DNA of 64,000 nt. Origin: Posidoniimonas polymericola (GTDB lineage Bacteria; Planctomycetota; Planctomycetia; Pirellulales; Lacipirellulaceae). The position numbers were made by a program, and so were the translations under genes. The stretch is taken from the NCBI RefSeq assembly GCF_007859935.1, contig NZ_SJPO01000009.1, positions 186,001-250,000 on the forward strand. The letters run 5' to 3'. Below are positions 34,081-38,472 of this stretch, piece by piece (the first letter of the stretch is position 1; every line of letters starts with the position of its first letter). A model generated the notes under the pieces. The model was not told the origin of the DNA. It saw nothing but the letters and a program-made list of their open reading frames with translations, and did not search any database.

Positions 34081-34872
34081 ATGCCCGAGCAACTCACCGC
34101 CCCCCGCTTTGCCGCCATGAAGGGGGGAGACCGCAAGATCTCTGTCCTGACGGCCTACGACTACACCATGGCCAAGCTGGTCGACAGCTGCGGGATCGAG
34201 GGGATCCTGGTGGGCGACAGCCTGTCGATGGTGGTCCAGGGGCACCAGAACACGCTGCCGGTCTCGATGGACGAGATGATCTACCACGCTGGCATGGTCG
34301 GCAGGGCGGTGGAAAACGCGTTGGTGATTGTCGACCTGCCGTTCCCCAGCTACCACCTCGGCCGCCACAAGGCGATCGAGAACGCCGGCCGGATCCTCAA
34401 GCAGACCCGCTGCCAGGCGGTCAAGCTCGAGGGGGGCGTCGAGCAGGCCGACACCATCGCGGCCCTGGTGCAGGCCGGCATCCCGGTGATGGCCCACGTC
34501 GGCCTGCGGCCGCAGAGCGTGCACCAATTGGGCGGCTACCGGGTCCAGCGCGACCGCCAGCAGCTGCTGGCCGACGCCCAGGCGGCCGAGCACGCGGGGG
34601 CCTTCGCGATGGTGCTGGAGTGCGTCCCCACGGCGATTGCCACGGAAATCACCCAGAAGGTGTCGATCCCGACCATCGGCATCGGCGCCGGCCCAGAGTG
34701 CGACGGCCAGGTGCTGGTCATCAACGACGTCGTCGGGCTGACCAGCGGCTACGTGCCTAAATTCGTCAAGGCGTACGCCGACCTCGGCAAGACCATCACC
34801 GAGGCCGTCACGGCCTACCGCGATGAGGTGCGATCTGGGGCATTCCCGACCAAGGAGCAGTCGTACGAGTAA
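34081..34872 (+). CDS. panB: 3-methyl-2-oxobutanoate hydroxymethyltransferase
   Basis: This 263-aa enzyme transfers a hydroxymethyl group from methylene-tetrahydrofolate to alpha-ketoisovalerate, the first committed step of pantothenate (CoA) synthesis. Family marks are KISVLTAYDYTMAKLVD, GILVGDSLSMVVQGH (metal Asp), DLPFPSYH, AVKLEGG, VMAHVGLRPQS, LECVP and TIGIGAGPECDGQVLV. The ATG at 34081 begins the family-like region; in-frame sequence back to 33847 is not conserved-looking. No SD is seen. Other pan genes are absent from the window. The left REPIN begins 20 bases after its stop. Confidence 0.93.
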   Translation: MPEQLTAPRFAAMKGGDRKISVLTAYDYTMAKLVDSCGIEGILVGDSLSMVVQGHQNTLPVSMDEMIYHAGMVGRAVENALVIVDLPFPSYHLGRHKAIENAGRILKQTRCQAVKLEGGVEQADTIAALVQAGIPVMAHVGLRPQSVHQLGGYRVQRDRQQLLADAQAAEHAGAFAMVLECVPTAIATEITQKVSIPTIGIGAGPECDGQVLVINDVVGLTSGYVPKFVKAYADLGKTITEAVTAYRDEVRSGAFPTKEQSYE

Positions 34873-34892: not shown

Positions 34893-34986
34893 GTCCCACC
34901 TCTTGCGAGGTGGGCTGCCCTGGTGCAGAGCCGCAAGCAAGAACCGAGCCGCAAATGATGGTAGCCCACCCCGCCAGGGGTGGGAC
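34893..34986. repeat. Left REPIN flanking the RAYT transposase gene (family C)
   Basis: Arm GTCCCACCTCTTGCGAGGTG plus GGCTGCC (34893-34919) is inverted relative to GGTAGCCCACCCC plus GCCAGGGGTGGGAC (34960-34986). Each arm folds on its own: CCCACCTC-TTGC-GAGGTGGG and CCCACCCC-GCCA-GGGGTGGG. The pair is 94 bp long and starts 20 bases after panB. Confidence 0.88.
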
Positions 34987-34991
34987 AACCC

Positions 34992-35489
34992 CTAGCGCGG
35001 GTCCCGCCAGCCAATCTCCTCGCGCCAGAACCAGCCGCTATGCTTCGGTAAGTAAGCGTTCACCAAGTGCTCGAAGTGCCGCCGCGACTCGACCTGCTGT
35101 CGGCTCGCACCGCGTGCGAACCACTTGTGGCCAACACAGTCGTGCTCGCGAGAAAGGTGAAGTGAGATCAGGTTCTTGATCCGGCCGCCGACCTGCTTCA
35201 TCGGCGCCTGGAAGTCCCGCCAACTCGCTAGCAGGTGAACGTGCGACGCTTCACTCGCCGCGGCGTGGGCGCGGTAGCCTTCTTCTTGGCAGATGGCCTG
35301 GAACCGTTCGATGATCGCTCGCTGCAGCTCGGAGTCGAACGAGACCTCGGGCTGCGTGAGCAGACCACGTTGAATGGTCGCGAGCTTCTTGTTGGTCGGG
35401 TGGATCCCGCGATTGCGCTCGACGTATCCCTGCGGCCGGTCGGGGAGCCAGCTGCCGTACGCGTGGTAGGTGAATAGCGCTACCGGCAT
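34992..35489 (-). CDS. REP-associated tyrosine transposase (RAYT, Y1_Tnp/IS200-like)
   Basis: This 165-aa HUH-superfamily protein has the metal-binding HUH motif as HVH (83-85, in ASHVHLLASW). A candidate nucleophile Tyr146 lies in HLVNAYLPKH, and there is an aromatic C-terminal HSGWFWREEIGW. The N-terminus (ALFTYHAYGSWLPDRPQGYVE) is usual for planctomycete members. RAYTs process REP hairpins in single-stranded DNA; here the gene is bracketed by two hairpin pairs of the same family (34893-34986 and 35561-35636). An AGGGG-type SD lies 9-10 bases before the ATG. The short size and paired flanks argue for a domesticated RAYT rather than a mobile IS200. Confidence 0.87.
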   Translation of the reverse strand: MPVALFTYHAYGSWLPDRPQGYVERNRGIHPTNKKLATIQRGLLTQPEVSFDSELQRAIIERFQAICQEEGYRAHAAASEASHVHLLASWRDFQAPMKQVGGRIKNLISLHLSREHDCVGHKWFARGASRQQVESRRHFEHLVNAYLPKHSGWFWREEIGWRDPR

Positions 35490-35560
35490 TGGAAGAGCCC
35501 CTGCGGTGAAAGTGTGCGCATGTACACATTAAGCAGCGGCGTCGCCATTGCAAGTAGATT

Positions 35561-35636
35561 GTCCCACCCCTGGCGGGGTGGGCTGCCCCAGGGCAAAGCC
35601 GCAAGCCTTGGTAGCCCACCCCGCCAGGGGTGGGAC
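35561..35636. repeat. Right REPIN flanking the RAYT transposase gene (family C)
   Basis: The left arm (35561-35587) starts GTCCCACCCCTGGCGGGGTG; the right arm starts GGTAGCCCACCCC (35610 on) and ends in TGGGAC at 35636. Both arms fold alone and with each other. The inner segment GCCGCAAGC is shared with the left REPIN. The gyrA promoter begins 15 bases later. Confidence 0.9.
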
Positions 35637-35651
35637 CGACCCCGCCGAGCA

Positions 35652-35718: not shown

Positions 35719-38472
35719 GTGGCCAACGACGACGAAGGAAACCCCGGCGATCCCCAGAATCCAGCTCCGCGGGAGCCTGGGTTTGACCCGGCGGAGCAGG
35801 CGATCGCCCAACGGCTGATCGACCTGCCGATCGAGGACGAGCTGAAGGACAGCTACCTGACGTACGCCATGAGCGTGATCGTCAGCCGCGCGCTGCCCGA
35901 CGTCCGCGACGGCCTGAAGCCGTCGCAGCGCCGCATCCTGGTCGCGATGAACGACCTCAACCTCGGCCCCGGCTCGGCGCGGGTCAAGTGCGCCAAGATC
36001 TCTGGCGACACCAGCGGTAACTACCACCCGCACGGCGAGAGCGTCATCTACCCGACCCTCGTGCGCATGGCCCAGGAATGGAACATGCGCAACGTGCTCA
36101 TCGACAAGCAGGGGAACTTCGGCAGCATCGCCGGCCTGCCGCCGGCCGCCATGCGGTACACCGAAGCCCGCATGTCGCCGATGGCGTCGATGATGCTCGA
36201 GGACCTAAAGCTCGACACGGTCGACTTCATCCCGACCTACGACGAACGCCACCTCGAGCCGACGGTCCTGCCGTCGAAGTTCCCCAACCTGCTGGTGAAC
36301 GGCTCGGGCGGCATCGCGGTCGGCATGGCGACCAGCATCCCGCCGCACAACCTGGGCGAGGTCTGCCGCGGCGTGATCGCGCTGATCGACGACCCGGAGA
36401 TCACCATCCCGGAGCTGATGGAGCACATCCCCGGCCCCGACTTCCCGACCGGCGGCATCATCTGCGGCCGCTCGGGCATCCTCCGCGGCTACCAGACCGG
36501 CCGCAGCACGATGACCGTGCGCGCCCGCACCAGCATCGACGAGTCGGGCAAGCGGACCCGCATCCTGATCCACGAGATCCCGTACCTGCAGGCCCGCGAC
36601 CGGGTCGAGGAGCGGATCGCGGCGCTGGCCAACGAGGGCAAGATCGCCGGCATCGCCGACGTCCGCAACGAGTCGGACCTCAAGGAGCCGGTCCGCCTGA
36701 TCATCGACCTGAAGCGCGACGCCGATCCCGACATCGTGCTCAACCAGCTCTACAAGTTCTCGCCGCTGCAGGACACGTTCAGCCTGATCTTCCTGTCGCT
36801 GGTTGACGGCAAGCCGCGGGTGCTGAACTTGAGGGAGATGCTGCAGGAGTTCGTGCGGCATCGGGTGACCGTCATCCGCCGCCGGACACAATTCCTGCTC
36901 GCCAAGGCCCGCCGCCGCAAGCACACGGTGCAGGGCCTGCTGCTGGCGCACGCCAACATCGACGAGGTGATCCGCGTTATCCGCGCCAGCAAGACGCAGC
37001 CCGAGGCAAAGACCGCCCTGATGGCGATCAAGACGCCCGGCGCCATGCTGCAGCGGGCGCTCGGCGACGAGGGCTTCGCCCAGTTCCAGGAGGAGCGCGG
37101 CTTCGCCGAGGAGTACTCGCTGACGCCGGTCCAGGCCGACGCGATCCTCAAGATGACCCTCGGCCAGCTGGTGAACCTGGAGCAGGAGAAGCTGACCGAC
37201 GAGCACACGCAGCTGCTCATCGAGATCGCCGGCTACCTCGAGATCCTCGGCGACGAGGCGCGGATCTACGCCATCATCCGCGAGGACATGGAGGCGATCG
37301 CCAGCAGCAAGCACGCCGACGCCCGCCGCACCGAGATCAGCCACGCCGAGGTCGGCGACGTCGACATCGAGGACCTGATCGAGGAAGAGACCATGGTGGT
37401 CTCGATCAGCACGAACGGCTATATCAAGCGGACCCCGGCCAGCACCTACCGCGCCCAGCGGCGGGGCGGCAAGGGCATCCGCGGCGCGTCGGTCGCCGAC
37501 GACGACCCGATCGAGCACCTGTTTGTCACCAGCACGCACGACTACCTGCTGTTCTTCACCAACCTCGGCAAGGTGTACTGGCAGAAGGTCTACCAGCTGC
37601 CCGAGCTGGCCCGCGACTCCAAGGGCCGCGCGGTGGTGAACCTGCTGAACTTCTCCGAGGGCGAGCGGATCGCCGACTGCCGCGCCATCCGCGACTTCGA
37701 CCTGCCCGACCACTCGCTCTTCATGGCCACCCGCAAGGGCCTGGTGAAGAAGACCGAGCTGAAGGCCTACAGCCGCCCGATGAAGACCGGCATCATCGCC
37801 ATCAAGCTCAAGGAGGGCGACGAGCTGGTGGACGTCGTCGTGACCAAGCCGGGCGACGAGGTGCTGCTGGCCACCGCCAGCGGCATGGCGATCCGCTTCA
37901 ACGAGTCCGACGCCCGCTCCATGGGCCGCAACTCCAGCGGCGTGAAGGGCGTGAGGCTTGGCAAGAACGACTCGCTGGTTGGCATGGTCGTGGCCGACCC
38001 CGACGCCACGCTGCTGACCGCCACCGAGCACGGCTACGGCAAGCGGACGCCGTTCGGCCCCAACGCCGCTGAAGCCGGCGACGGACCCAGCGAAGGGGCC
38101 GACGAGGACGAGGCCTCGTCCTCGGCCAAGTACCGCACCCAGGGCCGCGGCGGCAAGGGCGTCCGCGACATTAAGACCACCGACCGCAACGGCCAGGTGA
38201 TCGGCATCACCCGCGTCATGGACGACGATGAATTGCTCATGATGACCGCCCGCGGCAAGATCCAGCGGATCAAGGCCTCGGACATCGGCGTCATCGGCCG
38301 CAACACGCAGGGCGTGCGGATCATGGGCCTGGACGACGGCGATTCGCTCACGGCGATTGTCCGCGTGCCGGCCGAAGAAACGGACGACGACGCAGCTGCC
38401 GACGCGGCCGGTGAGGCATCGGGCGGGGACGCCGCCGGCAACGACGCGGGCGGGGTAGAGGGCGCCGAATAG
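35719..38472 (+). CDS. gyrA: DNA gyrase subunit A
   Basis: This 917-aa gyrase subunit cleaves and religates DNA. The N-terminal domain has [20 protein letters not shown] and [10 protein letters not shown], the quinolone-region sequence [17 protein letters not shown], and the catalytic tyrosine (about Y147) in [10 protein letters not shown]. The C-terminal beta-pinwheel carries the GyrA box QRRGGKG at about 580, which identifies GyrA rather than ParC. A second degenerate box QGRGGKG follows later. An acidic insert ([13 protein letters not shown]) and a long Asp/Ala/Gly-rich tail are present. The start is GTG 35719, with GAGG ten bases upstream. gyrB is not in the window. Confidence 0.96.

What the first reader, a model, noticed from the sequence alone, without database searches (positions are those of the whole stretch)
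34893..35636. RAYT transposase bracketed by two REPIN-like hairpin pairs between panB and gyrA
A complete HUH/Y1 transposase of the RAYT type (HVH 83-85, Tyr146) lies between two hairpin pairs of one family. Each pair is built of two opposite REP hairpins sharing the GTCCCACC / GGTGGGAC ends and the inner GCCGCAAGC. Gene and substrate repeats are thus together, as in known RAYT loci. Planctomycete RAYT/REPIN systems are little described in what I know, so this is a compact test case.
Basis: partly seen in the sequence, partly recalled or inferred. Interest (0 to 1): 0.75.

Follow-up and report, generated by a model that had tools for sequence, protein, structure and literature searches.

The report
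Divergent planctomycete REP-linked hairpin transposase
This is a small single-strand DNA transposase gene sitting between copies of its own hairpin repeat, which is scattered about 60 times between genes of this planctomycete; it belongs to an overlooked, catalytically unusual branch of a known kind of system (REP repeats with their RAYT enzymes) and shows that such systems are widespread in this phylum.

Summary
A 165-aa HUH/Tyr (Y1) protein (34992-35489, minus strand; HVH 83-85, Tyr146) lies between two pairs of inverted 25-nt hairpins. The hairpin (YAG + 8-bp stem + 4-nt loop + AC) recurs about 60 times elsewhere in the genome, all intergenic by my gene calls. Three paralogues (40-43% identical) in the same genome are each bracketed by a different, unrelated hairpin family with its own dispersed copies. 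In the only same-genus genome held, panB and gyrA are adjacent and the whole hairpins-gene-hairpins block (~744 bp) is absent. That genome has almost none of this hairpin, but keeps one paralogue with its matching hairpin. Related proteins carry related hairpins across the phylum. It is not a canonical RAYT: the protein falls below every family cut-off, forms a separate clade (99/100 support), and has an invariant Tyr+4 His (YLPxH) where known classes have Asn-Pro or Gln. I rate it a new variant of a known kind. Mobility and cleavage are inferred, not shown.

The parts
34893..34919 (-). REP hairpin 1 (foot GCAG, stem CCCACCTC/GAGGTGGG)
   Evidence: compensatory variant of the consensus
34960..34986 (+). 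REP hairpin 2 (foot GTAG, stem CCCACCCC/GGGGTGGG)
   Evidence: with hairpin 1 forms an inverted dimer (tags facing inwards)
34992..35489 (-). RAYT-like Y1 (HUH) transposase, 165 aa; HVH 83-85, Tyr146, His150 (YLPKH)
35561..35587 (-). REP hairpin 3 (foot GCAG)
35610..35636 (+). REP hairpin 4 (foot GTAG)
   Evidence: forms the second inverted dimer with hairpin 3
34893..35636 (.). whole REPIN-gene-REPIN block, absent between panB and gyrA of same-genus genome G496
   Evidence: G496 panB alignment ends at window 34876, gyrA alignment restarts at 35641, about 20 nt apart in G496
34081..34872 (+). panB (left neighbour, context only)
   Evidence: product named from its sequence as read, not profile-checked
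35719..38472 (+). gyrA (right neighbour, context only)
   Evidence: product named from its sequence as read, not profile-checked

Best explanation
A REPtron-like locus of a divergent, planctomycete-centred clade of Y1 (HUH) single-strand transposases. The protein most likely binds its hairpin as single-stranded DNA, using the YAG foot plus stem. It would cut next to the hairpin with Tyr146, with a metal held by His83, His85 and (inferred) His150, forming a 5'-phosphotyrosine link and rejoining strands. That would copy or move the hairpins, as inverted dimers or singles, into intergenic single-stranded DNA, for instance at replication forks. Each paralogue serves only its own hairpin family. 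The block at panB-gyrA is an insertion/deletion unit whose ends coincide with the outer hairpins. Shown: gene, predicted fold, invariant residues, cognate dispersed hairpins, co-distribution, indel. Inferred: binding, cleavage, mobility, metal role of His150.
For: Y1 fold: AlphaFold pLDDT 96.4; Foldseek top hits are IS200/IS605 transposases plus TnpA_REP 4er8; Z up to 13.8, and 4er8 Z 10.4 over 119 residues at 3.0 A. H83, H85, Y146, H150 invariant in 32 members. 64 hairpins of this family including the window's: foot A 61/64, G 63/64, Y 62/64, base before it free, some stem changes compensated; 60 of 60 dispersed ones intergenic although about 80% of those loci is coding. Three paralogues each with another hairpin family, flanks, dispersed copies. 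Co-distribution: this hairpin 43 copies here, about 4 in the same-genus genome G496 that lacks the gene, background only in 145 others of the order; paralogue L004's hairpin 37 here, 29 in G496, which has a 64%-identical protein with that hairpin, 0 in 42 other family genomes. Family flanks: 3.1 hairpins per kb against 0.37 in control, TAG at the foot in 33/59 against 11/146 (p 3e-13). Related proteins carry related hairpins (Mantel r 0.33, p 0.002 without near-duplicates). Indel at panB-gyrA.
Against: No biochemical test. Polarity of the indel is not settled, because among the family genomes compared panB and gyrA lie together only in this genus. Several hairpin sites are shared, in mutated form, with G496, so much of the dispersal is old; no recent single-hairpin jump was demonstrated. 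Only 24 of 38 members showed a perfect stem of 8 bp or more within 250 nt. Copy number (tens) is below the hundreds of classic REPs. Co-variation of protein and hairpin could partly reflect shared ancestry.
Confidence: 0.85

Rival explanations
1. An autonomous IS200/IS605-type insertion sequence: the hairpins are simply its left and right ends, and dispersed hairpins are its internally deleted derivatives (MITE-like).
For: IS200/IS605 transposases are the best fold matches. At paralogue L004 the two hairpins flank the gene with tags outward, and many dispersed dimers have the same tags-outward layout (12 of 16 here). The block is present/absent between two genomes.
Against: One gene copy per hairpin family instead of near-identical multiple copies; four hairpins in mirrored dimers rather than two ends; most hairpin copies are single or dimers with no trace of the gene.
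Confidence: 0.1
2. The hairpins are maintained for a host role (bidirectional terminators or mRNA 3' ends, gyrase or IHF-like sites) and the protein is a domesticated relic with no current mobility.
For: All sampled copies intergenic, 37 of 44 sites downstream of at least one gene (tandem or convergent); strong stems.
Against: Hairpin identity follows the cognate gene and not the host: two same-genus genomes share the neighbouring genes at about 90% identity but differ tenfold in this hairpin; four unrelated stems coexist in one genome; catalytic residues are invariant across the clade.
Confidence: 0.05

Closest known systems
RAYT / TnpA_REP with REP-REPIN (REPtron), class 2 of Quentin et al. 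2018 (PMC6006769); recognition studied in PMC8266576
   Same: Single small Y1 protein gene flanked by short palindromes dispersed between genes; each gene has its own hairpin family; 5' foot ending in AG next to the stem; perfect 8-bp stem with short loop like group 3 REPs; inverted dimers.
   Different: Y motif YLPxH instead of Y---NP; [ST]H-x-H instead of mostly [DN]H-x-H; foot is YAG with the preceding base free, not strict GT[AG]G; far below the NCBIfam REP_Tyr_transpos cut-off; separate clade from Y---NP proteins of the same phylum.
Class 3 TnpA_Y1 (Planctomycetes, Acidobacteria; PMC6006769)
   Same: Nearest relatives in the tree and in profile searches (NHVH, YVxxEQ); same phylum; flanked by repeated hairpins.
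   Different: Class 3 has Y----Q (Tyr+5) and hairpins reported with a CnGA foot; here Tyr+4 His and a YAG foot.
IS200/IS605 transposases (TnpA of IS608, ISDra2)
   Same: Same fold and HUH + Tyr centre; the class signature Y---Q puts a metal-site Gln (Gln131 in IS608) four residues after the Tyr, the position taken here by His150.
   Different: No multi-copy near-identical element; Tyr+4 is His, not Gln; extra hairpins.
GTAG-tagged palindromic repeats of prokaryotes incl. Rhodopirellula baltica (PMC3733652)
   Same: Tagged palindromes in a planctomycete, several families per genome, dimers of head-head and tail-tail type.
   Different: The parts of the paper that I read do not describe this protein clade; whether R. 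baltica's REP-linked genes belong to it was not tested.

Membership tests
Y1 / HUH transposase superfamily | HUH motif and downstream catalytic Tyr in the Y1 fold | tested here: met
   H83, H85, Y146 invariant in 32 members; Y1 fold by Foldseek and VIA-align on the predicted model
Y1 / HUH transposase superfamily | profile score over curated cut-off | tested here: not met
   Pfam Y1_Tnp 20.3 bits against 23; but 15 of 32 members match at E<=0.01, best 1.9e-7. A cut-off is a curation choice, not a biological trait, so it lowers annotation confidence, not the fold assignment
Canonical RAYT (class 2 TnpA_REP) | Y---NP motif | tested here: not met
   YLPxH in this protein and nearly all homologues; Y146 and H150 invariant
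Canonical RAYT (class 2 TnpA_REP) | NCBIfam REP_Tyr_transpos cut-off (80 bits) | tested here: not met
   13.6 bits; canonical RAYT-type genes of the same genome reach 55-92 bits
RAYT/REP system in the functional sense (REPtron) | gene flanked by hairpins that are dispersed in many intergenic copies | tested here: met
RAYT/REP system in the functional sense (REPtron) | each gene has its own hairpin family | tested here: met
   four paralogues, four families
RAYT/REP system in the functional sense (REPtron) | GT[AG]G foot 5' of the stem | tested here: inconclusive
   foot is YAG with any base before it; GTAG/GCAG at the gene itself
RAYT/REP system in the functional sense (REPtron) | protein binds and cuts its single-stranded REP | not testable with these tools
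   needs purified protein
Class 3 TnpA_Y1 | Y----Q motif | tested here: not met
   His at Tyr+4, no conserved Gln at +5
Class 3 TnpA_Y1 | phylogenetic placement with class 3 | tested here: inconclusive
   clade lies beside class-3-like rows, weakly resolved backbone
IS200/IS605 insertion sequence | near-identical multi-copy element with the gene inside | tested here: not met
   one copy; next best in the genome 43% identical

The most novel reading that the evidence does not exclude
This clade is a fourth class of TnpA_Y1: a REP-mobilising enzyme with a three-histidine metal site (HUH plus His at Tyr+4) and a YAG foot code, widespread in Planctomycetota and missed by current family models, with several independent enzyme/hairpin pairs coexisting in one genome.
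Probability: 0.6. Interest if true: 0.6.

Novelty: new variant of a known kind. Interest (0 to 1): 0.52.

Why it matters
Whether RAYTs really mobilise REPs, and how enzyme and hairpin stay matched, are open questions studied mainly in Proteobacteria. Here one genome holds four enzyme/hairpin pairs of one clade with unrelated stems, and a same-genus genome in which only one such enzyme was found: a natural specificity and loss experiment in a distant phylum. The changed metal-site residue also offers a contrast for HUH chemistry. The family lies below current annotation cut-offs, so such loci are probably being overlooked.

Tried and rejected
Chance hairpins: rejected (controls 0). Repeats confined to this locus: rejected. 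Known RNA family: no Rfam match. Canonical RAYT: profile, motif and tree all say no. The canonical Y---NP-type genes of the same genome as the drivers of these hairpins: of the three checked, two have no hairpin of 8 bp or more within 500 nt, and the third has one terminator-like hairpin without the tag plus a copy of another paralogue's hairpin. Claiming recent jumps of single hairpins from empty sites in G496: I compared 12 sites; about 7 have a counterpart in G496, mostly mutated, and about 5 have none, but sites were picked for being intact here, so this is biased and polarity is open; I did not use it as proof. The PDB sequence search found IS608 only at E about 1.

Full report
WHAT IS THERE. 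The window lies in contig C9 of a 6.26-Mb planctomycete genome. Between panB and gyrA a 165-aa ORF runs on the minus strand (34992-35489). On each side lie two inverted copies of one hairpin: 34893-34919(-), 34960-34986(+), 35561-35587(-), 35610-35636(+). The hairpins fold better than shuffles, the second dimer by 7.8 standard deviations.

THE REPEAT IS GENOME-WIDE. The core occurs 46 times against 0 for the reversed control (three of the 46 are unlike the rest). In fetched loci plus the window, 64 hairpins align without gaps: Y-A-G, 8-bp stem, 4-nt loop, AC. Conservation stops sharply at the foot: the base before YAG is free. Some stem changes are compensated (C-G to T-A 4 times at one pair; for paralogue L004's hairpin C-G 29/T-A 13 and G-C 36/A-T 6). 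All 60 dispersed copies fall outside genes by a home-made codon-usage gene call, although about 80% of those loci is coding. Dispersed dimers are mostly tags-outward with about 14 nt between (12 of 16), whereas the two pairs at the gene are tags-inward. Read across the gene, the two inner hairpins are again tags-outward.

FOUR GENES, FOUR HAIRPINS. The genome has three more proteins of this kind, 40-43% identical. Each has its own flanking hairpins: GTAG-CTGCCGGCGGAAGCCGGCAG (L002), TAG-CCGGCGAGCTACG... (L003), TAG-CCGAYGGATTACATCCRTCGG (L004). These too are dispersed: 28, 49 and 41 hits respectively (palindromes can be hit on both strands, so the first two counts overstate sites).

THE CLADE. 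In 32 aligned members H83, H85, Y146 and H150 are invariant; the Y motif is YLPxH, the HUH motif mostly [ST]H-x-H. AlphaFold gives pLDDT 96 and the fold is Y1: IS200/IS605 enzymes Z up to 13.8, TnpA_REP 4er8 Z 10.4 with 119 residues aligned through residue 160. Curated models miss it. The tree places the clade on its own branch (99/100), beside NHVH/YVxxEQ proteins that match Quentin's class 3, and apart from Y---NP RAYTs of the same phylum. The published signatures put a metal-site residue four positions after the Tyr: Gln131 in IS608 (Y---Q), Asn119 with catalytic Tyr115 in E. coli TnpA_REP (Y---NP) (PMC6006769, PMC8266576). Here Tyr+4 is His, so I infer a third histidine ligand.

FLANKING HAIRPINS ARE A PROPERTY OF THE CLADE. 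Within 250 nt of the genes there are 3.1 hairpins per kb against 0.37 in 400 kb of control genome; 33 of 59 have TAG at the foot against 11 of 146 (p 3e-13). Of the canonical Y---NP-type genes of this same genome, three were checked: two have no flanking hairpin, the third has one without the tag.

ENZYME AND HAIRPIN TRAVEL TOGETHER. This hairpin: 43 copies here, about 4 in same-genus genome G496 (which lacks this protein), background elsewhere in 145 genomes of the order. L004's hairpin: 37 here, 29 in G496, which has a 64%-identical protein flanked by that hairpin, and 0 in 42 other genomes of the family. Across the phylum, closer proteins carry closer hairpins (Mantel r 0.33, p 0.002 without near-duplicates).

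THE INDEL. In G496 panB and gyrA are adjacent: the alignment stops at window 34876 and restarts at 35641 with about 20 nt between in G496. The missing block is the hairpins-gene-hairpins unit, within a few bases. Polarity is open: in the other family genomes compared, panB and gyrA lie far apart or on different contigs. Orthologous hairpins in G496 are often present but mutated. This suggests that the hairpin family is older than the split and decayed where the enzyme is gone, with the caveat that sites were chosen for being intact here.

HOW IT LIKELY WORKS. By analogy with TnpA_REP (PMC8266576): binding to the single-stranded hairpin, cutting at a dinucleotide picked by the last two bases of the foot (AG, nearly invariant here; CT expected), a Tyr-5'-phosphate intermediate, and strand transfer. 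These steps are inferred.

VERDICT. The protein is a RAYT-like member of a distinct Y1 clade, not a canonical RAYT. REP repeats in planctomycetes and class 3 proteins were known. I found no description of a YLPxH clade in the papers I could search, but many subscription papers and all supplements were out of reach.

Noticed in passing
L003, L004, L146 (G000:C1:519.6-522.7 kb; G496:C5:163.6 kb): Two of the four paralogues sit about 2.1 kb apart; in G496 a single protein related to L004 (64%), with L004's hairpins, sits at the locus that in G000 holds L003, as if one replaced the other at a shared site.
   Followed up: partly
L269 (G000:C3:191785-192246): A canonical RAYT-type gene has a copy of paralogue L003's hairpin about 130 nt downstream, the only tagged hairpin seen near it.
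   Followed up: partly
L277, L284 (G000:C6:91477, C4:484018): Canonical Y1 genes of 224-242 aa (NHWH, YVERN[PA]) with no flanking hairpins, like the REP-less class 2.1 in Quentin et al.
   Followed up: partly
L042 2501-4288 and L057: A clade member reads in frame without a stop into an aminotransferase-like protein (595 aa in all); probably a missing stop between adjacent genes, not a real fusion.
   Followed up: no
L062-L085 flanks: Class-3-like proteins (NHVH, YVxxEQ) also show some TAG-footed hairpins (4 of 11), unlike the published CnGA foot.
   Followed up: partly
L105 about 1110-1320 (G000:C3:575741-575815); G000:C4:293727 and 293977: Hairpins of different families cluster in the same regions (this one next to an L003-type copy; this one near an L002-type copy).
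   Followed up: no
G437, several contigs: Another planctomycete of the order has a family GTCCCACCGGACGCAGCCGGTGGG in about 12 copies, possibly another hairpin repeat.
   Followed up: no
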